Of a DNA stretch of 64,000 nt, positions 6,294 through 41,413 are shown piece after piece; the first letter of the stretch is position 1; every line of letters begins with the position of its first letter. The translations under genes and the position numbers were made by a program. A model generated the notes under the pieces. That model had not been told where the DNA came from and did no database searches. It saw only the letters and a program-made list of their open reading frames with translations. The DNA is taken from positions 1-64,000 of the forward strand of contig JAJFGF010000002.1 of assembly GCA_021776245.1 (NCBI GenBank), read 5' to 3'. Source of the stretch: Hyphococcus sp. Lineage in GTDB: Bacteria > Pseudomonadota > Alphaproteobacteria > Caulobacterales > Parvularculaceae.

Positions 6294-7460
6294 ATGCTGA
6301 TCATTGAATGCGGCGTGGCGCAGACCCGCGCCGCGCTGATCGACGGCGATATCGTCACGCGTTTCTGGTTTGGTCCGGCGCGCGGCGATGAAGCAACCGA
6401 CCAGGCGCCGCGCGCCGGCCGAAAATTTACCGGCCGCGTCAAATCGATCAACAGGTCGCTCAATGCGGCGTTCATTGATATTGGCGACGCGCTTGATGCA
6501 TATCTTCCATTGAAGAAAAACAACGAAGCGCTTGCGGCCGAGGGCGCGCTTGTGGGCGTCACGGTGAAATCCCCGCCGCGCCAGGGCAAGGGCGCCGTGT
6601 TGAAATTCAATCCTGATCTTGAGATTCAAGACGACGCGCCGCGCCGTGCGCCGCCAATTGACGATCCGGTGATTGACGCAGTGAAGGCGATTGGCGCGTG
6701 CGCCAAAAAAATCCTTATCGATGACGGACCCGCGCGAGCTGTGCTGGCGGCGGCGGGGCTCAAAGCTGAGATAGAATATGAAGAACACGCGGTTGCGCTT
6801 TTTGACCTGCATGGCGCCAGCGATGCGCTTGGCGCTGCGTTTGAAAGAACCGTGGCCCTTAAAGGCGGCGGCAGGCTGATCATTGACGAGACGCAAGCCT
6901 TGACCGCCATTGATGTGGACAGCGCCGGGCTCGGCGCGTCATCGCCTGCGCGCCTTCGCGAAAAAATGGCGATCGCCGCAGCAAGCGAAGCCGTCAGGCA
7001 AATCGCGCTGCGCAATATTGGCGGCCATGTTGTCATCGACTTTCCGGCGATTGGCGCCAAATCCGCACGCACAAGATTTCGCGCGCATTTGGAAAAAGCG
7101 CTCTTGCGCATTGACGGCGCCGGCGGCGGCAGTTTTTCAAAATCCGGGCTGTTTTCATTTACGGCGCCGCATATTGCGCAGAGCCTCGTGGAGCGGTTTA
7201 CGGAATGCTCGCCAGGCGATCCGGTTGCCGGACGGCATTTTACCCTCGACTGGCAGGCAAAGTCGGCCTTGAGGGCTTGCGAACATCGCCTGCGCGCATC
7301 GCCGCGCGTAAAACTGCGCCTCGCTGCCGGCAAAGATCTCTATGGCTATTTGAATGACAGGAAAACATGGATCGATCGGTTGAATGACCGCTATGGTCCG
7401 CGCGTTGAAATGACTGTGGACGAAAAACTGGAGGAGCGCGGCTTTGACCTCTCGGAATAA
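6294..7460 (+). CDS. ribonuclease E/G family protein
   Basis: A 388-residue protein resembling RNase G and lacking the long RNase E scaffold. The S1-like part (GRVKSINRSLNAAFIDIGD) is at residues about 45-65. The catalytic DNase I-like part has TAIDVDSAG and GGHVVIDFPAIG, which supply the two metal-binding aspartates of RNase E/G. The usual Asn of DxN is Asp here (DVD). It is shorter than E. coli RNase G (489 residues), and no CPxC zinc link was seen at the C-terminus. Role: endonucleolytic rRNA/mRNA processing, inferred. Start chosen at ATG 6294; a GTG at 6258 would overlap maf by 31 bases. Confidence 0.85.
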   Translation: MLIIECGVAQTRAALIDGDIVTRFWFGPARGDEATDQAPRAGRKFTGRVKSINRSLNAAFIDIGDALDAYLPLKKNNEALAAEGALVGVTVKSPPRQGKGAVLKFNPDLEIQDDAPRRAPPIDDPVIDAVKAIGACAKKILIDDGPARAVLAAAGLKAEIEYEEHAVALFDLHGASDALGAAFERTVALKGGGRLIIDETQALTAIDVDSAGLGASSPARLREKMAIAAASEAVRQIALRNIGGHVVIDFPAIGAKSARTRFRAHLEKALLRIDGAGGGSFSKSGLFSFTAPHIAQSLVERFTECSPGDPVAGRHFTLDWQAKSALRACEHRLRASPRVKLRLAAGKDLYGYLNDRKTWIDRLNDRYGPRVEMTVDEKLEERGFDLSE

Positions 7461-7659
7461 TGACAAGGATCGTGGAGAAGGCGAGGGTGCAGACGCCCAA
7501 AAAACCGATTCATGCCCGATCTGCAAAAAACCATCGCTCGCGGCTTACGAACCGTTTTGCTCAAAGCGCTGCGCCGATGTTGATCTCCATCGCTGGTTCT
7601 CCGGCGGCTATGGAATTCCGGCGACGGAAGAGGACGATAGCGCAGGAGAAGAGGGGTAG
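7444..7659 (+). CDS. yacG: YacG-type zinc protein, DNA gyrase inhibitor family
   Basis: A 71-residue protein with the YacG zinc knuckle CPIC-x11-CSKRC (Cys24, 27, 39, 43), followed by the signature ADVDLHRWFSGGYGIP. E. coli YacG binds GyrB and inhibits gyrase. The start is TTG at 7444, overlapping the RNase stop by 17 bases, which suggests coupling. Its last ~40 codons are copied in whole or part at four other places in this window (8277, 11767, 16386, 17964). Only this copy has all four cysteines and an intact frame, so it is taken as the functional gene. Confidence 0.93.
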   Translation: MTSRNNDKDRGEGEGADAQKTDSCPICKKPSLAAYEPFCSKRCADVDLHRWFSGGYGIPATEEDDSAGEEG

Positions 7660-7709
7660 GGAGGCTAGCAACGCGTGCTGCGGTCATAACTAACCCTTGC
7701 TGCGGAAAA

Positions 7710-8177
7710 TTACTCAAAGCGCGAAAATGGCTTAGGCTCTTCGATGTTCAACAGCGTCAACAACTCACCGCGTTGCTCCTTAGAAAGGCTTTGCCCCAAT
7801 AAAATGATGTCGGTGAAATCGCCTCCTTCAACGTGACGCGCCATTACTAACACTGTCTCACTTGGTGCAAAAGCGACACCGCAATTTCCGTAGATAGGAA
7901 ATAAATGCTCTATCTTGATCGTTTCAGTTTTTGGCCCTTTTAGTATTTTGCGCACCTTGAAATGGGTAGTGACAATTTCGATTGGCTCATCGTCAGGATC
8001 TTGCGAATAGTTATCGACCTCCCAATAAGATCGAACGGCAGTTCCGACAAATATCCGATCCGCCTCTTCAATTAGTGATTGCGGGGTCAGCTCGCCTATA
8101 GGAGAGCAAGCGAACGCCGATGACGACAATGAAATGAACGCCGCAATCACCATTGACGCAAAACAAGATGCATTCAT
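7710..8177 (-). CDS. small secreted protein, possibly NTR/TIMP-like
   Basis: A 155-residue protein with a signal peptide (MNASCFASMVIAAFISL to SSAFA) and a mature start at Cys-Ser-Pro. The rest (ADRIFVGTAVRSYW, HFKVRKILKGPKTETIKIEH, YGNCGVAF) follows the pattern of small bacterial netrin/TIMP-like domains, where an N-terminal Cys pairs with an internal one. This is a pattern judgement, not a search. It lies between the true yacG end and a near-identical copy of the yacG tail at 8277, on the opposite strand, so it probably arrived or was enclosed during that duplication. Function unknown. Confidence 0.7.
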   Translation of the reverse strand: MNASCFASMVIAAFISLSSSAFACSPIGELTPQSLIEEADRIFVGTAVRSYWEVDNYSQDPDDEPIEIVTTHFKVRKILKGPKTETIKIEHLFPIYGNCGVAFAPSETVLVMARHVEGGDFTDIILLGQSLSKEQRGELLTLLNIEEPKPFSRFE

Positions 8178-8276
8178 GAAATTCTCAATTCAATTAGCTA
8201 GTTTTATCCTAAATCAGAAAATATAGAGAGGCAAAATCGGCATTATGCGTATCGGAGCACAGGCTCCGCGCGTCGC

Positions 8277-8423
8277 CGCTCGCGGCTTACGAACCGTCCG
8301 CCGCTTGCTAACGCGGCGGACTGCTCAAAGCGCTGCGCCGATGTTGATCTCCATCGCTGGTTCTCCGGCGGCTATGGAATTCCGGCGACGGAAGAGGACG
8401 ATAGCGCGGGGGAAGACGGGTAG
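8277..8423 (+). pseudogene. yacG 3'-end duplicate (copy B)
   Basis: Nearly identical to 7535-7659 of yacG from the Leu-Ala-Ala-Tyr-Glu codons to the stop, including CSKRCADVDLHRWFSGGYG, with only a few changes near the stop. A palindromic insert (about 8297-8320, TCCGCCGC / GCGGCGGA arms) sits just before the CSKRC codons. It lacks a start and the first two zinc cysteines, so it is not a functional YacG. High identity to yacG marks it as a recent copy. Confidence 0.85.
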
Positions 8424-8430
8424 AGGGTAA

Positions 8431-8498
8431 GGATCATTAAGCGCAGCCCGATGCACCGTTTCAGCCGCTGGATGTGCATTGCGCTGCGCTTAATACGC
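8431..8498. repeat. paired REP-type palindromes
   Basis: Two related REP units lie head to head: CATTAAGCGCAGCCCGATGC (in 8431-8457) and TGCATTGCGCTGCGCTTAAT (in 8471-8498). They match, with changes, the better-preserved units around the RAYT gene at 18126 and 18744. The pair sits between yacG copy B and the end of the CHAT gene and could also stabilise the 3' end of the CHAT transcript. Confidence 0.75.
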
Positions 8499-8512
8499 GC
8501 TGCGCAAACCGC

Positions 8513-11314
8513 TTACCATGTCCGGTTGATCTGCGGGCTGCCATAGAGACAGTAAAACAGCCACACCGGCCGCTTGAATTTTGTCGCCGCTTCTTCCCGC
8601 GCCATTCGCATCGCCTGACCCGCAGGAAAACCTTCGGTTGCGAAAAACTTGTAAAAGATGCGGGAGAAATCTACCGCCTGCTCTTCGGGCACAGGGCCAA
8701 GCGTGCCGATAAAGGGGCGGGCGCCCGCATAATAAAATTCGCGGCCAAAGCTTTGAAACTCCGCCAGCAGCATGTCGGTAGCGCCCGAGGAACAGGCATT
8801 GGCAAAAACCACGGCGCCCCATTTCAAATTCAAATTGTGCGCCATTGCCGGAATCAATTGACCTAACGGTCCTTCTTTATAGCTCAAATGATAGGAAGGG
8901 ATTGACCGTCCATGACAGTTGAAATGAACGACGTCGCGGCCCTTCACATAGTTCTTAATGTCGCCGAGATCTTTTTTGATCATTTCCGGGCGCACGACGA
9001 GTTTTGATTTTCTGTCAAATATTCGCGACGCGAGCCGCTTCGGATACTGAATTCCGTCGCCGATAATCAGCGCGATATCTTTTAGACCTTCAGACAGCGT
9101 TCCGGGTTTGGCCACATACGCATTGGAGACCTTTGTCAGCACCGGCGCGCGAACCAGCACAAACCGCTCCCCCCACAGATCGGCTTTCGGCGTTTCCGCG
9201 AGTAACTCCCAGGCGACCCAGTCTGCATCGCTGTCAATGATCAGAAAATCCCCGTCATGGAGCTCCGCCAGATGCGGCTTCAGGCTTGCCGGCGCGATCT
9301 GCTTGTAAAGGCTGTAGCCCTCGGCGCTGAGCCGGTTGAGCACAGTTTCAATCTCACCGTCTTTCATGTCGTTTTTCAGGAGATCTTTTATGATGGCCGA
9401 CTGGGTTGCGGAATGCTGGTCAATGAGCGCCTGGGGAATCTTTTGCGGAGAGACGCCCAAGTCGATAATGGCGCCATCCGGCTTAAACAGGCGCCAGTTC
9501 AAATGACCGTCATCGAGCGTTTTCACATAAAGAACCGTCGCCGCAGCTTGCTCAACCGCAAGCGCGTCGCCCTCCAGATGATCAATCAACTGTCTTTCCG
9601 CTTTGCCGCGGCGCTCGGTCCTCGAGATTGTCGTGATCACGCGGCTTTGCCCAAGCAGCGCCGCGCCATGATAGAATTTCACGTCAATGGCCTGCGCGCC
9701 AGGATCGCGCGGCGTTAGCGGAAATTCCGCGACGCTCGATGGTCCCTGCCGGGCGATGCGGATGGTCTGATGATCGGAGTCTGCGTCAAAACCGGGCGCG
9801 CGGATAAACACCTGGATTTGCGTTTCCGTCACGCCTTTCTCGAACGGAATATCAAGCGCCGGGTCCTGTCGTTGCTGTTGTTCGGCGACGATCCACACTT
9901 TCAGGGTTTCTGTCTTGCCCTGACGGCAGACAGCCGGAAACTCCGTATCGGGATAGCGCCTGACGATTGCCGCTGGCGCCGCTTCTGTTTCAGGATCATC
10001 CCCGGCTTCAGGTTCCGGTGCGCCGGCGGTTGGCGACTTTCCCTTCAGACTCTTCACGCGCTTTACAAAACCCTCATAGGCGATGGCGCCGAGCCCCGCG
10101 GGCGGCGTCGCATAGGAAAGGTTCAGGGAACCGGCAATATCCTTTGTCGCCTCAATCGAGGCGCCGATGATTGAAATCGATGCCAGGGGATCGGCCATCC
10201 ACGGGCGCTGTTTTTGCGCCGGGACTTGCAGGGATTTGAGCCACTGAAAATGCGACGCATCATATTCCCGCAAATCGATATGATGGTGACGAATGCCGAG
10301 GTCGTCGCGTTTCGCCAAAATACCGGAGAGTAAACCAGTCGCCGCCGCCCGGCGCGCCGCCGACGGATGGTTGGCTGCGCGCCAGACCAGCGGCGGCAGC
10401 GCGATATCCGCCGACATGCGCGCGGCTATTCTTTCTGCGCGCAGCCGGATGTCGCCGGGCCAGGTGATGGCCGCCGCCGCAACCGCCGCCGCGGTTTCCC
10501 GATCGTTGAATAATTCCAGCGCTTCGCTGGCAAAATAGGCGGCGAGTATTGGGCGCGAGACCTTTATGCGTTCGCCGCTCCTCATCTCCTTTTCCAGAGA
10601 GTCATAAACGTCGTTGTCAGGCTCCAGTCCGCTGTCGCCGGAAACAACTTCCAGCAATTGCCCGGCGGCCCCAATGCCGAATGCCGGCAACGTATTGCGC
10701 GCCACGAAACGAAAGACCGGGTCAGGCGACATCACCAGGATTTGGATAAGCTCGTTTATCGCCGCGTTGGTCTTGCCGCCGCGAAGTTGGGTCTCGATAT
10801 TCTCAAAGGCGCCGTCAAGAATGGCGGCGTAATCTTTCGCCGGCTTAAAACCAGCCGCGGCGTGTTTCCATAAATCGAGTTTGCTGAGGCCGATGGCGGC
10901 GAGGTCGGCGGCGGGCTGGTTCCCGGCGTCAATGATCTTTCGCGCTTTCCATGCCGCCATCGGCCCGAGCAATCCGTAAGGTCCCTTGAGGCCGGCTTCT
11001 TTTGTCTGCTTACGGACGAATGCTAGCCATTCATCCGCGCCGCCTTCCAGGGCTTTGCCAACAGCATCGGGTTTCGCGCCCAGCAGGCGGGCGGTAATCC
11101 CGGAAGCATCGGCCCCTGCATAGGCCAGCGCCCGGGCGATCGACAGCGCTTCTTCCGTCGGCAGCGATTCCTTCAGCTTTTCGTAGCGCTCGGTCAGCAG
11201 CGCCTTGACGTAGTCAGGCGGCATCGTGGATGCAGCACGAATAGCGCCGATACGCACCCGTGTTTCGACATCGGCTAAAGCGGCCTCGATGCTTTGAGAA
11301 AGATCGAGCTTCAT
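8513..11314 (-). CDS. CHAT-domain (caspase-like) protease with helical repeats
   Basis: A 933-residue cytoplasmic protein with no signal peptide. Residues 1 to about 330 are Ala/Leu-rich paired helices resembling HEAT/ARM repeats. A middle part (about 430-620) contains predicted beta segments. The C-terminal ~250 residues form a CHAT domain with the expected dyad: His801 in VVHFNCHGRS and Cys841 in VVFANACSSG, followed by GARPFIGTLGPVP and a C-terminal WLFYCLYGSP. CHAT enzymes cleave specific partner proteins and act in some antiphage and cell-death systems. The gene follows a small membrane protein gene by 10 bases on the same strand. The partner substrate is not known; function is inferred from the dyad. 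Confidence 0.88.
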   Translation of the reverse strand: MKLDLSQSIEAALADVETRVRIGAIRAASTMPPDYVKALLTERYEKLKESLPTEEALSIARALAYAGADASGITARLLGAKPDAVGKALEGGADEWLAFVRKQTKEAGLKGPYGLLGPMAAWKARKIIDAGNQPAADLAAIGLSKLDLWKHAAAGFKPAKDYAAILDGAFENIETQLRGGKTNAAINELIQILVMSPDPVFRFVARNTLPAFGIGAAGQLLEVVSGDSGLEPDNDVYDSLEKEMRSGERIKVSRPILAAYFASEALELFNDRETAAAVAAAAITWPGDIRLRAERIAARMSADIALPPLVWRAANHPSAARRAAATGLLSGILAKRDDLGIRHHHIDLREYDASHFQWLKSLQVPAQKQRPWMADPLASISIIGASIEATKDIAGSLNLSYATPPAGLGAIAYEGFVKRVKSLKGKSPTAGAPEPEAGDDPETEAAPAAIVRRYPDTEFPAVCRQGKTETLKVWIVAEQQQRQDPALDIPFEKGVTETQIQVFIRAPGFDADSDHQTIRIARQGPSSVAEFPLTPRDPGAQAIDVKFYHGAALLGQSRVITTISRTERRGKAERQLIDHLEGDALAVEQAAATVLYVKTLDDGHLNWRLFKPDGAIIDLGVSPQKIPQALIDQHSATQSAIIKDLLKNDMKDGEIETVLNRLSAEGYSLYKQIAPASLKPHLAELHDGDFLIIDSDADWVAWELLAETPKADLWGERFVLVRAPVLTKVSNAYVAKPGTLSEGLKDIALIIGDGIQYPKRLASRIFDRKSKLVVRPEMIKKDLGDIKNYVKGRDVVHFNCHGRSIPSYHLSYKEGPLGQLIPAMAHNLNLKWGAVVFANACSSGATDMLLAEFQSFGREFYYAGARPFIGTLGPVPEEQAVDFSRIFYKFFATEGFPAGQAMRMAREEAATKFKRPVWLFYCLYGSPQINRTW

Positions 11315-11324
11315 GTTGTTTTAT

Positions 11325-11597
11325 CTAGTCGCCCAAAAACTCATTGGTTGAATTGTTAGGAAAAAACGACAACACCATCGCGATCACAAGATAGGTGAAA
11401 AAGCCGAAGGCAAGACCCTTGGCGTAAAGGTCAAAGCTGATTGTATCCGATGGAAACAGGGAAACGATGGCGCCGCCGCCAACTGCGCCGATCACCGTCG
11501 CGATATCGGAAATCGCGGCGCTGTCCTTACGTCGAAGGGTTCGGTAGGTGATGTATCCGATCACCAGGCCAAAATAGAATTCACCGGCTGAAAACAT
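11325..11597 (-). CDS. small three-helix membrane protein paired with CHAT protease
   Basis: A 90-residue protein with hydrophobic segments near residues 4-20, 33-50 and 60-84, a basic loop YRTLRRKDSAA between the first two, and a polar tail NNSTNEFLGD. The ATG at 11597 is chosen because GGGGAG lies 7 bases upstream; ATGs at 11603 and 11666 are spaced less well. It is the first gene of a two-gene operon with the CHAT protease, so it may be a membrane anchor, a regulator or a cleaved effector of that protease. No family was recognised. Confidence 0.75.
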   Translation of the reverse strand: MFSAGEFYFGLVIGYITYRTLRRKDSAAISDIATVIGAVGGGAIVSLFPSDTISFDLYAKGLAFGFFTYLVIAMVLSFFPNNSTNEFLGD

Positions 11598-11766
11598 TGT
11601 CATTCTCCCCGTTGTTCGAAGGTTAAAAGCAACTGACGGATAAACTAAGTCGGCAATAAAGATCAAAGAATTATTGCCGATTGATGCGTATTAAGTCAAA
11701 GCTTGATTGCGCATTGATCCGGCGGCGCGTGGGCGGCGGCGCGGTCCGGCGGCCGGTAGCGGCCTG
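11598..11766. promoter_or_regulatory. upstream region of the CHAT operon
   Basis: The gap upstream of the small membrane protein should hold the promoter of the two-gene CHAT operon; AT-rich blocks lie around 11640-11700. No operator palindrome was seen. The sequence then passes into the yacG-like fragment at 11767. Confidence 0.35.
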
Positions 11767-11865
11767 GTCGATCTGTTGCATCGCCGGTTTTCCGGCGGTT
11801 ACGGCGTTCCCGCAACGGAAGATGACGATAGCGATTGGCGCCGCGTTTACGCCGGGGCTGAATAG
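11767..11865 (+). pseudogene. diverged yacG 3'-end fragment (copy C)
   Basis: Translating from 11767 gives VDLLHRRFSGGYGVPATEDD then DSDWRRVYAGAE and a TAG at 11863. This matches the YacG tail (VDLHRWFSGGYGIPATEEDD) but not the CSKRC zinc half, which is absent or unrecognisable upstream. Its different ending (SDW instead of SAGEEG) suggests an older copy or one from a different yacG allele. No start codon or ribosome site. Confidence 0.75.
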
Positions 11866-12054
11866 ATATCCAACCGCACACGGAACTGGCGGGCGAATGC
11901 ACGCCCTTCAATTGCCAGCCTCCAGCGCCACAGGCGTTTTGATCAGACTGCGCCGCAACTTCTTCCTGAATTAACAAACACTTAGATTTTGCTTGCTTGG
12001 CCCTTCTCTATTTGCATAGGATGCCTGCACTAAAAATTTTTGGGAGGGCGAGTG

Positions 12055-12639
12055 ATGTTGAGAACTATATTGATGGTGAGCGCTGCAGTTACAGTGGCGG
12101 GGTGCGGCACCGTTGTTCGTGGTACAAAACAGGGCGTAAAGTTTATTAGCGAGCCGCCGGGCGCCTCGGTCATGGTTGTCCGCGCGAAAAAAGTAGACAC
12201 GAGAGATGACTGTATCGCCCCTTGCGAACTTCAACTCAGCAGGAAACGCGATTTTGATGTTACCTTCGAACTGGACGGCTACAAGCCTGCACATGGCCGG
12301 TTAGCGTCGCGCCTCGGCGCAAAAGGCGGCGCTACTGCGGTTCCGGGAAACTTTGTGCTTGGCGGGGGGATCGGCTTTATCGTTGACGCCGGCACCGGCG
12401 CTAACATGCAGCTGAAGCCGGATCCGATGCGGGCCCGACTGGCGCCGATCGACAGCGCCGAATCCTCGATCATTTACGATCTGCGTGTCGAAGGCGGCGG
12501 GCGGGAAAATACGCTCTCGGATTCCGATCAAGCAGAATTTGATCAGGGAGATACAGCCCAGGCGGAATCTGATCAAGAAGAGCTTGTCGAAGACGCGCCA
12601 ATTGACGAAACGGTTGGCGAAGAAGAATTAAGCGAATAA
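12055..12639 (+). CDS. PEGA-like lipoprotein
   Basis: A 194-residue protein starting MLRTILMVSAAVTVAGCGTV, a lipoprotein signal with lipobox VAGC. The mature part opens with VRGTKQGVKFISEPPGASVM, the pattern of PEGA-type surface domains (Pro-Gly-Ala after a beta strand). DDCIAPCELQL holds a Cys pair. The last ~50 residues are acidic (Asp/Glu/Gln-rich). An ATG at 12055 with GGGAGGG 6-12 bases upstream is preferred over the GTG one codon earlier. Role unknown; probably an envelope protein. Confidence 0.78.
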   Translation: MLRTILMVSAAVTVAGCGTVVRGTKQGVKFISEPPGASVMVVRAKKVDTRDDCIAPCELQLSRKRDFDVTFELDGYKPAHGRLASRLGAKGGATAVPGNFVLGGGIGFIVDAGTGANMQLKPDPMRARLAPIDSAESSIIYDLRVEGGGRENTLSDSDQAEFDQGDTAQAESDQEELVEDAPIDETVGEEELSE

Positions 12640-12665
12640 TCAGCGTCGATTATTGCATTTGATAT

Positions 12666-12712
12666 TGGGCCGGACCGCCGCATCATTTCCACAGTGACGG
12701 CCATCCGGCCCA
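12666..12712. terminator. hairpin between convergent genes
   Basis: TGGGCCGGA (12666-12674) pairs with TCCGGCCCA (12704-12712), and TTTT follows a few bases later on the plus strand. It sits between the lipoprotein gene and the convergent DUF885 gene and probably ends the former. Confidence 0.55.
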
Positions 12713-12729
12713 CAGTTTTGGCGTCCGTT

Positions 12730-14559
12730 CTATCCCGCCTTTTCCGCAGCGATATAATCATCAATCACGCGGGTCAGCACGGTCATGGGAACGCTGCCGC
12801 CCAGCACCAGCGCATCATTAAAGCGGCGGAAATCGAAACGCTCGCCCAGCGCCAATTCTGCTTTTTGCCGTAAGCGATTAATCGCCGAATGGCCGACCTT
12901 GTAGCCGCAGGCCTGTCCCGGCCAGGCGCAATAGCGATCGACTTCGCCTTGCACTTCGTCGAAGCTCGACCCGTTATTGGTTACAAACCAGTCGATCGCC
13001 TGTTCCCGCGTCCATTGCTTGGCGTGAAGCCCGGTATCGACCACCAGACGGCAGGCCCGGAAGGCGAGGGACTGCAAATAACCAAGGCGTCCCACGGGAA
13101 AATCATCATAGACGCCAAGCTCGTCCGCGAGTTGTTCCGCATAAAGCGCCCAACCTTCCGAATACGCATTAAAAGCCAGCAGCGACCGGACCAGCGGCTG
13201 CTTGAATGTATATTCGCCCTGCCAGACATGTCCGGGGATCGCTTCGTGATAGGTAAGGTCCGCCAGATTGTAACGATTGTGCAGGCTGGTTGTCCGCAGG
13301 TTTATCCAGAAATGGCCGGGCTGTTTGCCGTCGATTGAGCCCGGACCGCCATAGGCGCCGGGGGCGCCCGCCTCAACATCCGGCGGGATGCGCGTCACTT
13401 CCAGAAAACCCGGCACGAGCGTTTCGAAGGCTTGCGGCATCAGCGCGCGGATCTCTGCGAGCTTTTCTTCGATGAACGCCATGATCTCCGCACGGCCCGC
13501 AGCGCCTTCAGCGAAAAGATAGCGCGGATCTTTCCCGAGCGCCGTCATGCGCGCACCGACCGATCCTTCGCTGTAGCCAATGGACCGCAAAATCGGATCC
13601 ATGCGCGCTTGAATAGTCGCCAGTTCGTCAAGACCCATCTCATGCACTTCGTCCGGCGACAGGGTGGTCGTCGTTCCGGCCTTGAGGCTCCAGGCGTAAT
13701 AAGCCTCGCCGTCTGGCAACGCCCAAACGCCCGCTTCATCGGTCGCCTGCGGCGCCAATGCGTCGAGCGCTGCAATCTGCCGGTCCAGCGCCGGGCGAAT
13801 TTTCGTTTCCGCAACGGCTTTCGCATGTTCGCCGTAAGCGCTATCGATCTTGCCGCCGCGCGTTGCAAGCGATGCAACGACCCCCCATTGTTCGACTGGC
13901 GTCGCCTGCGCGCCGCGCAAGGCGCCAAGGGTTTTGGCCATGAGGAAATTTGGCAGGATGACGCCCTTGTCGCCGTCAATGGTGACCCGTTGCGTTTCGC
14001 CATCCAGCTGACCTGCATAAGCTTCCATCCGCGCGAGGTAAGCGTCGGCGTCTTCAGCGTTTTCTATTTGATGCGCGCTGTCGAGAAATGACGGGATCTC
14101 AACAAAGGCGCCGGTGTTTTGCGCCACCGCATAAGGACTGTTGCGATAAGACCAGTTGTAATTGAGGAGCGCCATGTCGCCATAGGAGAACGCAAATCCC
14201 TCCGCCGCCGTCTCATAGACCGTGCGCACCACATCCACATTGAGCGCTTCGCCGGGCGCGAGCGCCGAACCGTCAACGCCGCGCAATTTCGCCAGCGTTT
14301 CTTGAACGCCGCTTTTGATATTCGCCACGCCTGCGGGTGAGCGGTCGGAAAGCTTTGCCTTGAGGGATTGATATTTGCCGTGGTCGATGCCGGCGCTGGA
14401 CGCGCTTTCAGGATAAAGCGTCAGAATTTGATCGGTGGTTTTTGAAAGCAGATCGCTCGCCGCATCCGCTGGTGCGTCGCGGCCGGCGCATGACGGCAAG
14501 GCGGAAACAGCGGCTGCTGCGGCCGTTGTCTGAAAAAGCGTGCGGCGCGATAGTTTCAT
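12730..14559 (-). CDS. DUF885 family lipoprotein, putative metallopeptidase
   Basis: A 609-residue protein with a twin-arginine-like signal (SRRTLFQ) and a lipobox ending SALPSC, so an exported lipoprotein is likely. The body is the mostly helical DUF885 fold. The characteristic HEAIPGH at residues 438-444 resembles the HExxH zinc site (with an extra residue), and AYSEGWALYAEQLADELG follows about 28 residues later, as in the family. DUF885 proteins are thought to be metallopeptidases or carboxypeptidases. It is monocistronic between convergent and divergent neighbours. Confidence 0.88.
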   Translation of the reverse strand: MKLSRRTLFQTTAAAAAVSALPSCAGRDAPADAASDLLSKTTDQILTLYPESASSAGIDHGKYQSLKAKLSDRSPAGVANIKSGVQETLAKLRGVDGSALAPGEALNVDVVRTVYETAAEGFAFSYGDMALLNYNWSYRNSPYAVAQNTGAFVEIPSFLDSAHQIENAEDADAYLARMEAYAGQLDGETQRVTIDGDKGVILPNFLMAKTLGALRGAQATPVEQWGVVASLATRGGKIDSAYGEHAKAVAETKIRPALDRQIAALDALAPQATDEAGVWALPDGEAYYAWSLKAGTTTTLSPDEVHEMGLDELATIQARMDPILRSIGYSEGSVGARMTALGKDPRYLFAEGAAGRAEIMAFIEEKLAEIRALMPQAFETLVPGFLEVTRIPPDVEAGAPGAYGGPGSIDGKQPGHFWINLRTTSLHNRYNLADLTYHEAIPGHVWQGEYTFKQPLVRSLLAFNAYSEGWALYAEQLADELGVYDDFPVGRLGYLQSLAFRACRLVVDTGLHAKQWTREQAIDWFVTNNGSSFDEVQGEVDRYCAWPGQACGYKVGHSAINRLRQKAELALGERFDFRRFNDALVLGGSVPMTVLTRVIDDYIAAEKAG

Positions 14560-14990
14560 GGAACAGTTCCCTCGAATTGGCGGCCGGTTTTAAGGTCTCC
14601 CGCCATGGGGTTTGTGGTTACGCGATTTTGCTGCATTTGGCGAACCAATTGTTGCGGGGCGCGGGCGCGCTTTCCTTTCGCCGTCACTGCGGGTTCTCTC
14701 CCATGCGGCCCATGGATAAAATGGCAGCGGCGGTGCGCGCATGTGCGGCGCAGCGAAATGAGTTGGGCCATTACTCCCGCTCATTCCGGCGAAAGCAGGA
14801 AGCCAGGCTGCAGTTCCATATCCGCGATTGCTGATTTCAAATGAGCGTGGTGGCGTTCGCGCCCATGGTTCGTTGACGCCCCCTATGTGCAGCGCATCAT
14901 AAGAAACAGCGCATTTTCTGACCGACAAATTGAATATTGAGCATGCCTATGTCATGATCACCCATGTCGCGGGGAAATATAGGGTGTGCT
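14560..14990. other. divergent intergenic region with a dispersed repeat
   Basis: This 430-base gap carries promoters for the DUF885 gene and the HtrA gene, and a repeat at 14781-14826. No gene was recognised. Plus-strand AT-rich sequence just before 14991 is the likely promoter area for the protease. Confidence 0.4.
14781..14826. repeat. dispersed CATTCCGGC repeat, copy 1
   Basis: TCATTCCGGCGAAAGC at the left and GCAGTTCCATATCCGC at the right are shared with 31521-31566 (TCTTTCCGGCAAAAGC and GCAGTTCCATATCCGC). The two copies are about 80% alike, 17 kb apart, and both intergenic. The CCGGCRAAAGCCGG core is a common alphaproteobacterial intergenic palindrome. Confidence 0.7.
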
Positions 14991-16349
14991 ATGCGCAATA
15001 AATTCTTTTCCGCATTTTTCGCAGCGTTTTTTGTATCGATGGGATTGATGGTGAGCAGCGCTTCCGCGCGCGTTGTCGTTGACGGATTTGCTGACCTCGC
15101 TGAAACGGTCAGTCCTGCGGTCGTCAGCATATATTCAACGCCGCGCGTTAGCGGCGAGCTGGAAATATTGCAACAAAGATATAGCGGCCGGCGAAAATCT
15201 CTCGGCGCCGGCTTTTTCATCGATGCCGCCGGAACAATGGTTACGACTGATCATATTATCGGCGACAATGACGATTTGATCATAAAGCTGTCTGACGGCC
15301 GTGAATTCAGCGCTGCAATTCGCGGCCGCGATCGTGAAACGGATCTTGCGGTGCTCGAAATTACTGATGCGGAAACTGCCAGATTTCCCTTTTTGAAATT
15401 CGGCGACTCGGAAAAAGCACGCCCGGGCGATTGGGTCATGGCGATTGGCAATCCGTTCGGCCTCGGACGGTCTATCTCAATCGGCATAATTTCTGCTGTC
15501 CATCGTGATCTGCAAGCCGGTCAATATGACGATTTCATACAGACTGATGCAGCGGTCAATCGCGGCAGCTCCGGCGGCCCGCTTTTTAACGTCAAAGGCG
15601 ATGTTATTGGCGTACTGACAGCCATCTATTCACAGACCGGCGGCTCTGTCGGCGTTGGTTTTGCTGTGCCGTCGGACCTTGCCGGCACCATCGTTAGCCA
15701 GATTTTAGAATTTGGCGCTGCGCAGCGCGGTTGGCTTGGCGTATCGATTGATGATGTTACGCCGGCGCAAGCAAAGGAGATTGGTTTGCGCACGCCGCGT
15801 GGCGCGAGCGTCTCTGCTGTGCGGCCCGAAAGTCCCGCCAGCGAGGCGGGCATCCGGGCGGGCGATGTCATCTTGTCCTATAACCGGCAGAGGATATTAA
15901 ATACCCGCCATTTGTCCCGCGAAGTTGCTGAAACTACGGTCGGCGAAGCGGTTCACGTCGTCGTTTTAAGAGACCGCCGCCGCGTCTCGCTAAGCGTCAC
16001 CGTCGCCCAAAGAGCGTTGCTGGCGCGTGCAGCCGCGACTGGGCCGGTTCCGGAAGGCGCCGCGCGGGCGTCTGGCGTTACGCTTCAGGACCCGACTCCC
16101 GAAATTCTCGATCAATTCGGTCTTTCAGAAATGACCAGCGGCATTGTCGTCATTGCGGTCGATCCCGAAAGCCCGGCGGCAATGGTCTTACAGCCTGGCG
16201 ATGTCATCCATGAGATTGGCTGGGAGCGAATGAACAGCGCCCAGGAAGCCGCTGAAAAGCTCAACAAACTGCGGGACCTTAATTCCGGTCCGGTGCAGAT
16301 TTATGTCCAGCGCGGCAATCTTTTGTTCTACGAATCTCTAAGACCGTAG
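14991..16349 (+). CDS. HtrA/Deg-type periplasmic serine protease with two PDZ domains
   Basis: A 452-residue protein with a signal peptide (residues 1-26, cleavage after SASA) and the trypsin-like fold of HtrA. The triad is His88 (TTDHII), Asp118 (RETDLAVLE) and Ser194 (RGSSGGPLF). PDZ1 starts near RGWLGVSIDDVTP (residue ~245) with SEAGIRAGDVIL. PDZ2 starts near ASGVTLQDPTPE, with SPAAMVLQPGDVIHE. It would degrade or refold misfolded envelope proteins. The long Q-loop of DegP is short, nearer DegS/DegQ. The ATG at 14991 is chosen since it begins the signal peptide. Single gene. Confidence 0.92.
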   Translation: MRNKFFSAFFAAFFVSMGLMVSSASARVVVDGFADLAETVSPAVVSIYSTPRVSGELEILQQRYSGRRKSLGAGFFIDAAGTMVTTDHIIGDNDDLIIKLSDGREFSAAIRGRDRETDLAVLEITDAETARFPFLKFGDSEKARPGDWVMAIGNPFGLGRSISIGIISAVHRDLQAGQYDDFIQTDAAVNRGSSGGPLFNVKGDVIGVLTAIYSQTGGSVGVGFAVPSDLAGTIVSQILEFGAAQRGWLGVSIDDVTPAQAKEIGLRTPRGASVSAVRPESPASEAGIRAGDVILSYNRQRILNTRHLSREVAETTVGEAVHVVVLRDRRRVSLSVTVAQRALLARAAATGPVPEGAARASGVTLQDPTPEILDQFGLSEMTSGIVVIAVDPESPAAMVLQPGDVIHEIGWERMNSAQEAAEKLNKLRDLNSGPVQIYVQRGNLLFYESLRP

Positions 16350-16385
16350 ATGATTGGCAGGCATCGGGTTTGGGGAGCGGCTCGG

Positions 16386-16474
16386 GTGGGCGAGGCGGAA
16401 GAGGAAGATGTGCGGTGTGGGGTAGGGCGCATTAAGCGTTCTTCGATAAACTCGGGATGGCTGCGCAATGCACC
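16386..16474. repeat. yacG-tail remnant (copy E) fused to a REP unit
   Basis: At 16390-16412 GGCGAGGCGGAAGAGGAAGA matches the ATEEED codons of the yacG tail. It runs into GGTGTGGGGTAGGGCGCATT, the same junction seen after copy D at 18113-18137. The REP arms GCGCATTAAGCG and GCTGCGCAATGCACC are separated by a longer loop than elsewhere. This ties the yacG fragment and the REP together as one repeated block. Confidence 0.7.
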
Positions 16475-16500
16475 ATCCTGACTGATAAACCCTAACGAAA

Positions 16501-16524
16501 AAAGCCGCCCCGAAGGGCGGCTTT
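16501..16524 (-). terminator. rho-independent terminator of the trypsin-like protease gene
   Basis: GCCGCCC-CGAA-GGGCGGC forms a 7-bp GC stem with a tetraloop. On the minus strand it is followed by a run of T residues, 26 bases after the protease stop at 16550. Confidence 0.85.
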
Positions 16525-16549
16525 CATCATAATGTCAGTAGCCTGACGT

Positions 16550-17668
16550 TCAGGGACAGGTCCCCGGATTGACGACAACGCCGCCGCCGCTCAGGCTGGA
16601 CGATTTTGCCGCGTCGAAGAGGCATTCAGCTGTTGTGCCGGAAAGTATCGGACCGGCCATGCCGCTGCGTCCGCCGCGATAACCCCAGGAGTTGACGGAG
16701 ATGATCGGCCCCGAACCGGTTGCTTCATCCATCGGCTGCACCCATGGACCGCCGGATGAGCCGCCGGAAAGGCCGCAAGATCCAAGCCACCAATTGTCGG
16801 CGCCTTGCGTCGTCATGTCCTCGGCGCAATACATGAAGTTGGGATCATCACTATACGAATAGCCAAGAGCGTGGGTGAAATCGAGCGAGGTCGGGCCCTT
16901 GTCGCCGTCATTGAAATATGGCGGGAGGAAGTCGATTGCGAGTGAACCGGCGGCCGCATCCAGCGCGCCGCCTGAACCGTTTCCGGAATGCGATCCGCTG
17001 TCGCTGACGACATAATAAGCGTAATCCCATGGAATGTTGTCCGGGAATGTGCGCGTGGTCCAGTTCACGTCAACCACGCCAAAGTCCGGCGCCCAGCAAC
17101 CAATCGGATCGTTGGCGCAATCGAAGTCAGTGCCGGCGCCAGTCGTTGCATCCTGATTTGGAATGAACATCACGTTGGTCGCAAACGCCTTGGCCGCGTC
17201 ATCATAAGTACAATGTGCGGCCGTGATGATCACCGAGCGGCCGGACGTGGCGTCCGTGGCGGCCGTACCGGAGCAGACGAAAAAATTGCCGGCGCCCATT
17301 TCAAAGAGGATCCGGCCGGCTGCGTTCTGGACAGCGCCGCCAAATTCCCACGACGCGTTCTTTATTGTGCCGCCGCCGCCGCCGCCAGGTTTACCGCCGC
17401 CGCCATTGCCCGGTCGTGGTTCGATCGGCGCGCCAGGGCGGATCGTATGCCCGTATGGCGTCAGCTTGCCGTCGAAGCCTCTCAAATAGGCAAGTCCGCG
17501 GTCGTCGATGACCAGATCGCGCGGTTTCACCTGTGCAACACGTTCTGCTGTCCAGAAATCAAATACTTTCTTGGCGCGTTCATTTGGCGCAGCTTGCGCC
17601 GCCCCGAATGATGCAAGCGATAAAGAGATCGCCGCGCTGATCATTGGCAGTTTTTTGATTAAGTTCAT
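16550..17668 (-). CDS. secreted trypsin-like serine endopeptidase
   Basis: A 372-residue protein with a signal peptide (cleavage near AAQAA, residue 26). A pro-region to about residue 90 ends in a glycine-rich linker (GKPGGGGGG). The chymotrypsin-like catalytic domain has VIITAAHC (His), WDYAYYVVSD (Asp) and LSGGSSGGPW (Ser), all present. Cys pairs (FVCSG/AHC, CAND/GC, CAED/GSC) suggest disulphides, and the protein ends in a Cys-containing VNPGTCP. It is a likely exported degradative protease. It is monocistronic with its own terminator at 16501. Confidence 0.9.
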   Translation of the reverse strand: MNLIKKLPMISAAISLSLASFGAAQAAPNERAKKVFDFWTAERVAQVKPRDLVIDDRGLAYLRGFDGKLTPYGHTIRPGAPIEPRPGNGGGGKPGGGGGGTIKNASWEFGGAVQNAAGRILFEMGAGNFFVCSGTAATDATSGRSVIITAAHCTYDDAAKAFATNVMFIPNQDATTGAGTDFDCANDPIGCWAPDFGVVDVNWTTRTFPDNIPWDYAYYVVSDSGSHSGNGSGGALDAAAGSLAIDFLPPYFNDGDKGPTSLDFTHALGYSYSDDPNFMYCAEDMTTQGADNWWLGSCGLSGGSSGGPWVQPMDEATGSGPIISVNSWGYRGGRSGMAGPILSGTTAECLFDAAKSSSLSGGGVVVNPGTCP

Positions 17669-17963
17669 CGTTGAGTCCCTGTTCCTCCGTTGTGTTCAGT
17701 TCTTCCCATTGGCGGCTGAGAATTGCCGTCGATGGGACATTTCCCCGAGCGGCGGATACTGGATCAACTTTCCGTGAAGTGGCAAGCTTTGGCGTCAGAA
17801 TTCGCAAAATTTACGCCAAATATGGTCTCATTTGTGGGTACATTCTTTCTCTTGTGCCGTTTTTCCCGCGCTCTTCACAGAACTGATTCGGGGGGTGATG
17901 TTTTCAGGAAGATGCAAACACGGCTCAGTTTAACGCGCGCGCGTTTTCCCGTTTCCGCACGCT

Positions 17964-18120
17964 CCGGGCGCGTCCGCAAAAAACCGGGGCACGCGGAATA
18001 TGAACAATGCGCCGCTGTTTATTTCTCAGCGAACTGTTCAAAGCGCTGCGCCGATGTTGAAACCGCGCTGGCTCTCCGGCGGCTACGGGATTCCCGCGAC
18101 GGAAGAAGAAGATGTTAGGT
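17964..18120 (+). pseudogene. longer yacG pseudogene (copy D)
   Basis: From about 17964 the frame reads SGRVRKKPGHAEYEQ, aligning with CPICKKPSLAAYEP of YacG, with both first zinc cysteines changed to Arg (TGC to CGC). A 26-base insert with CGCTG/CAGCG arms follows (about 18007-18032), then CSKRCADV is intact at 18033. One frameshift leads to RWLSGGYGIPATEEED. No start codon. The insert sits at the same codon position as in copy B. A REP unit and the RAYT gene follow directly. Confidence 0.78.
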
Positions 18121-18125
18121 GTGGG

Positions 18126-18156
18126 GTAGGGTGCATTAAGCGAAGCGCAATGCACC
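18126..18156. repeat. REP unit upstream of RAYT
   Basis: GTAGGGTGCATTAAGCGAAG followed by CGCAATGCACC forms an imperfect palindrome (GGTGCATT / AATGCACC). It begins right after the yacG fragment and ends 43 bases before the RAYT start. The same unit, inverted, lies after RAYT at 18744. Confidence 0.85.
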
Positions 18157-18199: not shown

Positions 18200-18724
18200 A
18201 TGCCCAATTACCAGCGCCTTTTCGTTCCCGGCGGGGACTATTTTTTCACGGTCAATCTGCTTGACCGGCGTCAATCTTTGTTGACCGAAAACATTGATGT
18301 TTTGCGCGAAGCATACTCTTATGTTGAAAAACGCCACCTGTTTGAAACGGTTGCACTCTGCGTCCTTCCCGACCATCTCCATTGCATTTGGCGATTACCG
18401 CCTGAAGATGAAGACTATCCGGTGCGCTGGCGCTTGTTGAAAGCGCGTTTTTCAAATTCGATTCCACGTTCGACCGATTCGCGCAAAGGCCGCCGCAAGG
18501 GAGAGCGCGGCATCTGGCAAAGGCGATATTGGGAGCACTTAATCCGTGACGCTGAAGACCTCGACCGCCATGTTGACTATATTCACTTCAATCCCGTGAA
18601 ACACCGGCTTGTCGATGACCCGGATGATTGGCCGTATTCCACATGGCATAGCTGGAAAAAGGAATTTGTACGGCCGATCAATACACCGCCAGGCGAATGG
18701 GACCCGTCAAACGAATTCGTTTGA
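18200..18724 (+). CDS. REP-associated tyrosine transposase (RAYT)
   Basis: A 174-residue protein of the IS200-like Y1 transposase superfamily, RAYT branch. Seen: the N-terminal YQRLFVPGGDYFFTVNL, the metal-binding HxH in LPDHLHCIW, and the catalytic tyrosine region DYIHFNPVKHRLV followed by DWPYSTWHSW, all hallmarks of the family. RAYTs nick and move single-stranded REP palindromes. REP units flank the gene in opposite orientations (18126, 18744), so the set forms a complete REP-RAYT cassette. Confidence 0.93.
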   Translation: MPNYQRLFVPGGDYFFTVNLLDRRQSLLTENIDVLREAYSYVEKRHLFETVALCVLPDHLHCIWRLPPEDEDYPVRWRLLKARFSNSIPRSTDSRKGRRKGERGIWQRRYWEHLIRDAEDLDRHVDYIHFNPVKHRLVDDPDDWPYSTWHSWKKEFVRPINTPPGEWDPSNEFV

Positions 18725-18743: not shown

Positions 18744-18775
18744 GGGTGCATTGCGCTGCGCTTAATGCACCCTAC
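18744..18775. repeat. REP unit downstream of RAYT, inverted
   Basis: GGGTGCATTGCGCTGCGCTT followed by AATGCACCCTAC is the reverse complement of the upstream unit with one or two changes. It starts 20 bases after the RAYT stop. Confidence 0.85.
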
Positions 18776-18883: not shown

Positions 18884-18928
18884 AGTAGGGTTGTTTATGC
18901 GTCCTCAGGACGCATAAACAACCCTACT
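18884..18928. promoter_or_regulatory. perfect 45-bp palindrome upstream of abiE (site 1)
   Basis: Two perfect 21-base arms flank a 3-base centre. The left arm begins AGTAGGGTTGTTTATG and ends GCGTCC; the right arm is its exact reverse complement. The inner part TGTTTATGCGTCC is shared, with few changes, with site 2. Likely operator for AbiEi, which in streptococcal AbiE binds two inverted repeats in its promoter. Confidence 0.75.
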
Positions 18929-18974: not shown

Positions 18975-19032
18975 TTGACGTTTATATCCATACCCTGTAT
19001 ATACGTCCTTAGGACGTATATACAGGGTATGG
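18975..19032 (+). promoter_or_regulatory. abiE promoter overlapping palindrome site 2
   Basis: A -35 box TTGACG (18975-18980), a 17-base spacer and a -10 box TATATA (18998-19003) precede abiEi. The -10 lies inside a second perfect 45-bp palindrome (18988-19032) with 21-base arms (CCATACCCTGTATATACG, then TCC) around a TTA centre. The end of the palindrome also overlaps the GGAGG ribosome site at 19031-19035. Binding here would block the promoter, and a folded transcript would hide the ribosome site. Confidence 0.75.
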
Positions 19033-19040
19033 AGGTGTAA

Positions 19041-19949: not shown

Positions 19950-20817
19950 CGCGGTCCTCGAAATTGATGTCGCCAACTGGGTTGAACGAGCGAAAGCCGA
20001 CCCGATTGCATATCGTCAGCGTCAAGCAGTGGAAGTGACACTTAATGCAATCGCCATGACGGCGAAATTGAATGACAAACTCTATTTGAAGGGTGGCATT
20101 TTAATGGGACTTGCTTACGGCAGTCCGAGACAAACCGCCGATATCGATCTGACGACAGCATTCGAAGTCGGGCCCGAGATCGATGATCAGATAACCAAGT
20201 TGATGAATGGCGCATTGCCTCGCGCTGCAGCAAAAATTGGCTATGTCGATCTGATCTTGAAAGTTCACTCTGTAAAACGAATGCCAAAACACATTTTTGA
20301 AGACGCAGAATTTCCCGCGCTCAAAATGAAAATCGCCTTCGCAGAAAGAGGCACGCGTCAGGAAAAAATATTGGAAGAGGGCAGAGCCCCAAGTGTTATC
20401 GACGTCGATATCTCATTCAACGAAACCCTGCGTCAGATACAAATTCTGGAACTGACGGGTGGGCAAGAGCTGCAGGCCTACAGTCTTGTAGATTTAATGG
20501 CAGAGAAGTATCGCGCGATGTTGCAGCAAAAAGAGCGTAACCGGAACCGCCGCCAGGACGTTTATGATCTAAATCGATTGATTGCGGAAGGTGAGTTCGA
20601 TGATGCATTCCGAGCGCAATTGCTTGATGTATACGTTGAGAAATGCCGCTCACGTCATATCGAGCCAACGAAAGACTCGCTCGATGATTCTGAGATTAAA
20701 AAGCGTTCTGGCAGTGATTGGGAGACAATGAAGCTGGAGATCGGCGAATTGCCTGTTTTTGATGACTGCTATTCGAAAGTCACCGAATTCTATCGATCGC
20801 TGCCTTGGCGTAAGTAG
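19942..20817 (+). CDS. AbiEii-type nucleotidyltransferase toxin
   Basis: A 291-residue protein of the AbiEii/AbiGii family. Seen motifs: LYLKGGILMGLAYGSPR (Lys50-Gly-Gly) and TADIDL (Asp67, Asp69), the DxD metal site of the nucleotidyltransferase fold. The segment VDLMAEKYRAMLQQKERNRN with DVYDLNRLI follows, as in the family's KxR and later DxxD region. Related toxins add nucleotides to tRNA acceptor ends or transfer GTP and halt translation; AbiE gives phage resistance by abortive infection. It overlaps the antitoxin gene by 8 bases. Confidence 0.9.
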   Translation: MSDAVLEIDVANWVERAKADPIAYRQRQAVEVTLNAIAMTAKLNDKLYLKGGILMGLAYGSPRQTADIDLTTAFEVGPEIDDQITKLMNGALPRAAAKIGYVDLILKVHSVKRMPKHIFEDAEFPALKMKIAFAERGTRQEKILEEGRAPSVIDVDISFNETLRQIQILELTGGQELQAYSLVDLMAEKYRAMLQQKERNRNRRQDVYDLNRLIAEGEFDDAFRAQLLDVYVEKCRSRHIEPTKDSLDDSEIKKRSGSDWETMKLEIGELPVFDDCYSKVTEFYRSLPWRK

Positions 20818-20844
20818 CGCCTCCGGTGTGGGGCAGGCTCCAGC

Positions 20845-20922
20845 CCGCCATCGCAACGCCTGCCGCGGTCACAACAATGGCGGGTCGCGACCCGCCCTAC
20901 CGGTGACAGCCGGCTACTGCAC
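20845..20922. repeat. interspersed repeat, copy 1 (also at 24449)
   Basis: This block and 24449-24528 share CGCGGTCACAACAATGGCGG (TGCGGTCACAAC in the second copy), then GGTCGCGACCCGCC and a weaker tail. They lie in the same orientation and bracket 3.6 kb holding three genes. A shorter piece (GCTGCGGTCATAAC) also follows yacG at about 7675, and GGCGGGTCGCGACCC occurs near 22224. Confidence 0.75.
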
Positions 20923-24355: not shown

Positions 24356-24448
24356 GGGGAGGGTTCCGGGCGGATGACTATGGCGCTCGAATCTATACTG
24401 ACCCGCCGCGCGACGCCAGTAGCGCCGCCGACTTCGCGCGGGTTATAA

Positions 24449-24528
24449 CCCGCCATCGCATCGCCTGCTGCGGTCACAACAATGGCGGGTCGCGATCCGC
24501 CTTACGGGGCGGCAGCTGGCTGCTGAAG
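24449..24528. repeat. interspersed repeat, copy 2 (also at 20845)
   Basis: CCCGCCATCGCATCGCCTGC, then TGCGGTCACAACAATGGCGG and GTCGCGATCCGCC repeat the block at 20845 in direct orientation. An upstream GCGGGTTATAACCCGC palindrome (about 24438) resembles GGCGGGTTTTAACCCGCC at 39058. Confidence 0.75.
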
Positions 24529-41227: not shown

Positions 41228-41413
41228 ATGACAAACCTTAGCGGCGAGATGAGCGACAAGCTTGATGCGGCGGAACTCGGGATCGAGATCACGAAGGATG
41301 ATGCGCGAACGCGCATCTACGGCATGCCTTATGGGGAATGGAAAGAAAAATTCCAGGCTCCCGCGACGCCGGAGCCGGTGGCTGCGTTGGAGGCAAGGCG
41401 CGCGAAGAAATAA
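41228..41413 (+). pseudogene. shortened DUF1244 copy with internal deletion
   Basis: A 61-residue frame that opens MTNLSGEMSDKLDAAE, then jumps to LGIEITKDDARTRIYGMPYG and ends EARRAKK. Compared with the 101-residue gene at 39615 it lacks about 42 internal residues, including the CRNC cysteines. Both ends stay in frame and a GAGGA ribosome site is kept, so it may still be translated. Probably a decayed duplicate. Confidence 0.7.

What the first reader, a model, noticed from the sequence alone, without database searches (positions are those of the whole stretch)
7535..18156. The yacG 3' end is scattered as repeated fragments that separate gene modules
The last ~40 codons of yacG recur at 8277 (almost identical), 11767 (diverged), 16386 (short) and 17964 (longer, zinc Cys lost). 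Between them lie distinct cargo: a small secreted protein, a CHAT-membrane pair, a lipoprotein/peptidase group, and proteases. This looks like repeated insertion at, or copying of, the yacG 3' end, as when an integrating element restores its target gene's end. No integrase is visible, so the carrier is unknown; the RAYT/REP system beside copy D is one candidate.
Basis: partly seen in the sequence, partly recalled or inferred. Interest (0 to 1): 0.8.

Follow-up and report, generated by a model that had tools for sequence, protein, structure and literature searches.

The report
Stack of displaced yacG gene ends
Behind the intact yacG gene lie cast-off copies of its own tail with unrelated newly acquired genes between them; they look like scars of repeated gene acquisition in which incoming DNA swapped the gene's end and pushed the old one downstream, without a visible integrase.

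Summary
yacG (7444-7659) is followed by three clear, same-strand, 5'-truncated copies of its 3' end: B 8277-8423 (99/102), C about 11779-11833 (46/55), E about 17964-18118 (69/81). A fourth, 16386, holds only about 22 nt of yacG plus a REP junction shared with E. No other of 299 genomes of the order had more than two yacG matches. In 18 of 24 congeners with yacG a TonB-receptor gene follows directly: an insertion hotspot.
It is not isolated. This contig and the sister genome G021 hold 12 clean cases of a gene whose 3' end recurs downstream beyond 0.6-8.6 kb of cargo, none with the copy upstream; 1.80 Mb of comparison sequence had none. At leucyl aminopeptidase in G021 the empty site survives in the window's own genome, and the displaced tail keeps the ancestral downstream DNA. 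Pooled tail differences are too synonymous for copy-then-decay, so many tails come from different functional alleles. Best reading: sequential tail displacement by homology-facilitated illegitimate recombination with related DNA, a known kind, here at a housekeeping gene. An integrase is not supported; RAYT looks like cargo.

The parts
7444..7659 (+). yacG, intact copy (tail copy A)
   Evidence: Pfam PF03884 E 6.6e-14; maf-rng-yacG in 15 of 15 relatives' loci
7710..8177 (-). cargo 1: small secreted protein (secretion by eye), 155 aa
   Evidence: no Pfam match; 2 of 27 congeners have a weak match at E<=1e-5
8277..8423 (+). yacG tail copy B, 5'-truncated, with a 22-nt palindromic insertion near 8297-8321
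   Evidence: 99/102 to A; hairpin -12.1 kcal/mol, z -3.2; insertion similar to that of copy E (0 of 5000 shuffles)
8427..8501 (.). two inverted REP-like palindromes behind copy B
8513..11314 (-). cargo 2: CHAT-domain protein, 933 aa
   Evidence: Pfam CHAT E 6.7e-9; 0 of 27 congeners at E<=1e-20
11325..11666 (-). cargo 2: small membrane protein (by eye), 113 aa
   Evidence: ORF list; no Pfam match
11779..11833 (+). yacG tail copy C
   Evidence: 46/55 to A, protein E 2.2e-5
12040..12639 (+). cargo 3: lipoprotein-like ORF (by eye), 199 aa
   Evidence: no Pfam match
12730..14559 (-). cargo 3: DUF885 protein
   Evidence: Pfam E 6.8e-150
14964..16349 (+). cargo 3: trypsin-PDZ protease, 58% identical to the nearest other copy in this genome (contig C38)
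16386..16438 (+). short yacG tail/REP junction (D'), about 22 nt of yacG
   Evidence: 43 nt 91% to copy E junction; 53/64
16550..17668 (-). cargo 4: secreted protease-like protein (by eye), 372 aa
   Evidence: no Pfam match
17964..18118 (+). yacG tail copy E, the longest truncated copy, with an insertion at the same site as B
   Evidence: 69/81 to A; aligns with B over 184 columns, 71%
18126..18156 (.). REP
   Evidence: inverted partner 18745-18775, 97%
18200..18724 (+). cargo 5: RAYT (Y1_Tnp)
   Evidence: Pfam E 1.6e-6
18745..18775 (.). REP, inverted

Best explanation
Sequential tail displacement. DNA from related strains or sister species enters the cell. It pairs by homology with the body of a resident gene (here yacG), so the gene now ends in the incoming tail and is followed by the incoming downstream DNA (cargo). 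At its far end the incoming DNA is joined without homology to a point inside the resident gene's 3' part. The resident tail, cut at its 5' side, is thus pushed behind the cargo with its old downstream DNA. Repetition gives yacG-cargo-tail-cargo-tail..., broadly the oldest tail furthest away. Shown: structure, strand, truncation, hotspot, cargo not found beside yacG in relatives, the same structure at other genes, one case with empty site and polarity, and coding-type divergence between many tails. Inferred: the recombination mechanism (homology-facilitated illegitimate recombination), the donors, the route of entry, and that the yacG tails arose the way the LAP case did.
For: Copies. yacG-TonB within 0.5-1.6 kb in 18 of 24 congeners with yacG; own spacing 57 kb, G021 32 kb. 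Geometry: 13 tail-downstream pairs (12 clean; DUF1244 is a whole gene copy with an internal deletion), 0 tail-upstream, 3 head-upstream of which 2 are by-products of rows already counted, 2 head-downstream; the 13 lie in 715 kb of own C2 and G021 C1, 0 in 1.80 Mb of own C50, C65, G004, G040 and 14 relatives' loci. LAP case: own genome (L276) and G017 (L278) have LAP-MBOAT 80-110 bp apart; G021 has LAP, 2.7 kb cargo, second LAP tail, MBOAT; the own spacer matches DNA after the displaced tail (0 of 2000 shuffles) and not DNA after the present tail (1255 of 2000). Tail divergence over 13 pairs: 74 synonymous, 60 other, share 0.55 against 0.35-0.44 expected for copy-then-decay, p 1e-6 to 6e-3 over the settings tried; LAP 7/2, MAPEG 11/3, yacG C+E 11/7 (p 0.011-0.035). 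CHAT, secreted-protein and trypsin-PDZ cargo are special to this genome among congeners.
Against: No donor or intermediate for the yacG tails was found. On 51 shared nt, C and E differ from A by 9 and 8, G021 by 6, the other 23 congeners with yacG by 10-20, so in-lineage duplication is not excluded. Own pairs alone are only weakly non-neutral (p 0.017, 0.057, 0.10 for kappa 1, 2, 3); A/C and A/E share A and are not independent. MBOAT stands next to LAP in only 2 of 13 LAP loci read (some end early). B shares a frame-breaking insertion and a REP with E although its flanks are nearly A: this needs a later copy or gene conversion. In MAPEG the present tail, not the displaced one, has the slightly better downstream match; MFS is uninformative. 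In 80 RAYT loci of other bacteria the same scan gave 14 tail-down, 4 tail-up, 20 head-up and 11 head-down rows, many of them REPs or tandem repeats, so one-sided geometry is not universal. C2 was chosen because of the finding, so the density contrast is post hoc.
Confidence: 0.6

Rival explanations
1. Insertion with long target duplication inside one lineage: cargo inserts and the 36-200 bp target (gene tail plus what follows) is duplicated at that moment; the distal copy then decays.
For: Same architecture; B, the TonB tail and the 86100 tail are 95-97% identical; 86100 has a copy-then-decay ratio (2 syn, 4 non); MFS distances fit a copy formed soon after the split from the own lineage (my arithmetic on identities).
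Against: Pooled synonymous excess, strongest in G021 (39/22; p 2e-5 to 3.5e-4) and in a betaproteobacterial UbiD case (12/2, p 1e-4).
Confidence: 0.22
2. Site-specific integrating elements that target gene 3' ends and carry a replacement end; integrases lost or acting in trans.
For: Each event leaves the target gene with an end; G021 also has a tRNA-Trp 3' end (47 bp, 100%) repeated 3 kb downstream.
Against: No PF00589 match on the contig; no recombinase in the cargo proteins tested (7, 10); many different target genes; variable tail start.
Confidence: 0.08
3. RAYT/REP-driven movement: the HUH transposase mobilises REP-bounded pieces that include the yacG tail.
For: B, D' and E are each joined to a REP; close REP copies occur only beside this RAYT in the genome; in 5 of 80 RAYT loci from other bacteria a host gene tail recurs across a RAYT.
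Against: C and the other tail pairs of this contig and G021 showed no REP or RAYT to me; Nunvar 2010 (passages read) reports REPs accumulating near a rayt gene after its transfer, which would explain the REPs without tail movement.
Confidence: 0.07

Closest known systems
Sequential displacement by homology-facilitated illegitimate recombination (T6SS effector-immunity arrays of Vibrio cholerae, PMC5361080, passages read; rhs C-terminal displacement, cited there, not read)
   Same: Anchored on a conserved gene; new module inserted; old 3' end shifted downstream; repeated events build an array with the newest nearest the gene; no fixed integration site.
   Different: Here the anchor is a small housekeeping gene whose tail is not the selected cargo; the displaced tails look inert; the cargoes are unrelated to the anchor; other genes in the same region show it too.
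Insertion with long target duplication (Nobusato et al. 2000, known through passages of PMC1643837, PMC3031569 and PMC3154945)
   Same: Cargo between long, variable direct repeats of the target, no transposase.
   Different: Described in those passages for restriction-modification genes; here the repeats are 3' gene ends, and several pairs differ in a coding-constrained way, so they are not simple copies.
Genomic islands integrating at gene 3' ends (recalled)
   Same: Target gene end restored, old end displaced.
   Different: No integrase found, no fixed core, several target genes.
RAYT/REP (Nunvar et al. 2010, PMC2817692, passages read)
   Same: RAYT flanked by inverted REPs, REPs concentrated near it.
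   Different: Gene tails attached to REPs were not mentioned in the passages read.

Membership tests
Homology-facilitated illegitimate recombination / sequential displacement | One end anchored in a homologous gene, old gene part shifted downstream | tested here: met
   LAP empty site and polarity; for yacG only the architecture, polarity not informative
Homology-facilitated illegitimate recombination / sequential displacement | Incoming end comes from a different allele | tested here: met
   Synonymous excess pooled over 13 pairs; moderate for yacG itself (11/7, p 0.011-0.035)
Homology-facilitated illegitimate recombination / sequential displacement | Far junction illegitimate, short or no homology with donor | not testable with these tools
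   No donor sequence found (searched 28 congeneric genomes for copy E)
Insertion with long target duplication | Cargo flanked by long variable direct repeats of the target, empty site in a relative | tested here: met
   (empty site shown for LAP only)
Insertion with long target duplication | Repeats are copies of one target sequence | tested here: not met
   Pooled synonymous excess against copy-then-decay; single recent pairs (86100, TonB, B) cannot tell
Integrase-dependent genomic island | Integrase gene on the element or nearby | tested here: not met
   PF00589: 6 in genome, 0 on contig C2; no recombinase in cargo tested. Serine recombinases were tested only through those Pfam scans of single proteins
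Integrase-dependent genomic island | Fixed crossover core | tested here: not met
   5' breakpoints of B, C, E differ
RAYT/REP element | Y1 transposase gene between two inverted REPs | tested here: met
   18200-18724 with 18126-18156 and 18745-18775; applies to the RAYT only, not to the tail array

The most novel reading that the evidence does not exclude
An integrase-free route of gene acquisition that acts preferentially at gene 3' ends, by exchanging the gene's tail for a donor's, is common enough to build whole hypervariable regions, is specially active in this lineage (possibly with a dedicated machinery or carrier), and is also how solitary accessory genes such as RAYTs enter new genomes.
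Probability: 0.25. Interest if true: 0.8.

Novelty: new variant of a known kind. Interest (0 to 1): 0.55.

Why it matters
Many accessory genes in bacteria sit in hotspots with no visible integrase (established knowledge, recalled). Displaced gene tails are a readable scar: they mark the site, give the order of events and, by codon-level divergence, tell foreign ends from copies. This array at a housekeeping gene, with sister-genome cases that include an empty site, makes the route and its rate testable by simple genome scans.

Tried and rejected
tRNA-targeted island at yacG: ARAGORN found no tRNA in the window or in 15 relatives' loci. Named donor for copy E: DNA search of 28 congeneric genomes gave own yacG and G021 as the best relatives, no closer donor. 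yacG beside RAYT elsewhere: no yacG match (E<=1e-3) in 80 RAYT loci of up to 12.5 kb. RAYT enrichment: with called genes only 41 RAYTs were seen, 0 spanned by a tail pair, against 2 of 300 other genes, which does not support enrichment; a looser test gave 22 of 84 RAYT copies against 3 of 1954 random placements, but by eye most of the 22 are REPs at stop codons, so I rely on neither and report only five coding-tail cases read by eye. Their tail divergence is mixed: L107 23 syn/28 non, L109 2/3, L118 2/4, L146 1/3, L101 12/2 (that gene is partly masked by N). Rows left out of the synonymous test: the DUF1244 pair (14 syn/13 non), the pair of gene 69755-70870 (hardly any coding overlap) and D'. 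Polarity by downstream DNA for MFS, MAPEG and yacG: not informative. A 14-mer shared by B's insertion and a tail copy at contig position 108042 occurs (up to 1 mismatch) only there in 2.48 Mb: unexplained. Error of mine: the relatives' distances read minus-strand loci in the wrong orientation; one search repeats them correctly and is the one cited. Papers: PMC5361080, PMC3031569, PMC1643837, PMC3154945, PMC2817692, PMC3686654 and PMC2884548 were seen as passages, PMC3240628 as abstract and outline, the others as listings.
Full report
Observation. The window lies at the left end of contig C2 (155 kb) of a 4.14 Mb genome in 76 contigs. yacG (7444-7659) is a good YacG at the end of the conserved run maf-rng-yacG (15 of 15 relatives' loci). 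Its 3' end recurs on the same strand at B 8277-8423 (99/102), C about 11779-11833 (46/55) and E about 17964-18118 (69/81). The place at 16386 holds about 22 nt of yacG by eye and otherwise matches the tail-REP junction of E. In the own genome the next DNA matches have E 0.08 or worse, and protein search gives four places, all here. None of 59 relatives had a second yacG match at E<=0.001; in 299 genomes of the order five others had two matches at E<=0.01, whose second places were not shown.

Context. In 18 of the 24 congeners in which yacG was found, a TonB-receptor gene follows yacG within 0.5-1.6 kb (11, 7 more). Of the other six, G021 has it 32 kb away, G014 has none within 17 kb, and four could not be followed beyond 1.5 kb or the contig end. 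In the window's genome the receptor lies 57 kb away (65006-67045 of the contig). The cargo genes were not found beside yacG in the loci (19.5-20 kb each) of 15 relatives. The CHAT gene is in 0 of 27 congeners (E<=1e-20), the small secreted protein has weak matches in 2 of 27, and the trypsin-PDZ gene is 58% identical to its nearest other copy in this genome, on contig C38. So the yacG-TonB spacer is an insertion hotspot in this lineage.

It is not only yacG. A self-comparison for direct repeats showed other genes whose 3' end recurs, 5'-truncated, on the same strand further downstream: in own C2 the TonB receptor, an exonuclease/phosphatase-family gene, and genes at 85545-86243, 122835-124067 and 116202-116615; in G021 an MFS transporter, an L,D-transpeptidase, leucyl aminopeptidase (LAP), a winged-helix gene, a MAPEG gene and one more (several of these names are by eye). 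Counting one pair for yacG, one search found 13 tail-downstream pairs (12 clean; DUF1244 at 39615 is a whole gene copy with an internal deletion), 0 tail-upstream, 3 head-upstream (2 of them by-products of rows already counted, 1 genuine in G004) and 2 head-downstream. All 13 are in 715 kb of own C2 and G021 C1; none in 1.80 Mb of own C50 and C65, G004, G040 and 14 relatives' loci. C2 was chosen because of the finding, so this contrast is post hoc. The 80 RAYT loci (855 kb) are kept apart: there the scan gave 14 tail-down, 4 tail-up, 20 head-up and 11 head-down rows, many of them REPs or tandem repeats.

The clean case. In the window's own genome (L276) and in G017 (L278) LAP is followed after 80-110 bp by an MBOAT gene; in the other 11 LAP loci read, some of which end early, it was not found. 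In G021 the order is LAP, 2.7 kb of cargo (a TPR/HTH protein and a SnoaL protein), a second LAP tail of 63 bp, MBOAT. The spacer of the own genome matches the DNA behind the second tail (0 of 2000 shuffles as good) and not that behind the gene (1255 of 2000) (alignment). So the second tail is the resident end, and the end now on the gene arrived with the cargo. The LAP tails differ by 7 synonymous and 2 other changes.

Origin of the tails. If a tail were copied and then decayed, about 35-44% of coding-frame differences should be synonymous (24-28% if both were neutral). Over 13 pairs (10 genes other than yacG, plus A/B, A/C and A/E) the figure is 74 of 134 (55%); p from 1e-6 to 6e-3 across transition bias 1-3 and settings of constraint. 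G021 pairs: 39/22; own pairs: 35/38 (p 0.017, 0.057, 0.10); yacG C+E: 11/7 (p 0.011-0.035). Thus many tails diverged while both were part of working genes, which points to different alleles. For yacG alone the evidence is moderate: over 51 nt C and E differ from A by 9 and 8, G021 by 6, the other 23 congeners by 10-20.

REP and RAYT. B, D' and E are each joined to a REP-like palindrome, and E stands directly before REP-RAYT-REP. REPs within 3 mismatches of a 27-nt pattern occur only at this RAYT in the genome. B and E share an insertion of 22-24 nt at the same place (0 of 5000 shuffles), although B's flanks are nearly identical to A. That needs a copy or gene conversion after displacement and is not explained further. 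In 80 RAYT loci of other bacteria five show a host gene's coding tail on both sides of a RAYT (L101, L107, L109, L118, L146), so RAYTs seem to be among the cargoes of such events; the two enrichment tests disagreed and are not used.

Reading. Homology-anchored acquisition with an illegitimate far end explains structure, strand, truncation, the chain order and the foreign ends, and has a described parallel in V. cholerae effector arrays (PMC5361080, passages read; the idea is also invoked for short variable segments in PMC2884548, passages). Insertion with long target duplication is the main rival (passages). An integrase is not supported. The listings of my paper searches showed no description of displaced tails of a housekeeping gene such as yacG; this covers only the open-access library searched and the titles and abstract starts shown.

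Noticed in passing
contig C2 66994-70870 (L066 2994-6870), outside the window: The ends of the TonB receptor gene and of a convergent exonuclease/phosphatase-family gene are interleaved in several copies, joined at a 7-nt microhomology, with a GIY-YIG ORF and a porin-like gene between them.
   Followed up: partly
L107, L109, L118, L146, L101: In five RAYT loci of unrelated bacteria the 3' end of the neighbouring host gene is present on both sides of the RAYT.
   Followed up: partly
L157 5907-5943 and 6607-6643: A 37-bp terminator-like hairpin is duplicated exactly on both sides of a RAYT.
   Followed up: no
window 18884-18928 and 18987-19033: Two perfect 22-23 bp inverted repeats with 1-nt loops directly before the AbiE pair.
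   Followed up: no
window 20813-20919 and 24418-24525: An 81% direct repeat encloses the genes behind the AbiE pair, including a HEPN/nucleotidyltransferase protein.
   Followed up: no
window 39615-39920 and 41228-41413: DUF1244-like gene (family name recalled) followed by a copy with an internal deletion, a 2TM/HTH gene between them.
   Followed up: partly
G021 contig C1 about 424763-427807 (L259 1764-4808): The 3' end of a tRNA-Trp gene (47 bp, 100%) recurs 3 kb downstream; no integrase recognised by eye among the ORFs between.
   Followed up: partly
window 8298 and contig C2 108042: A 14-mer shared by copy B's insertion and another displaced tail occurs only twice in 2.48 Mb searched.
   Followed up: partly
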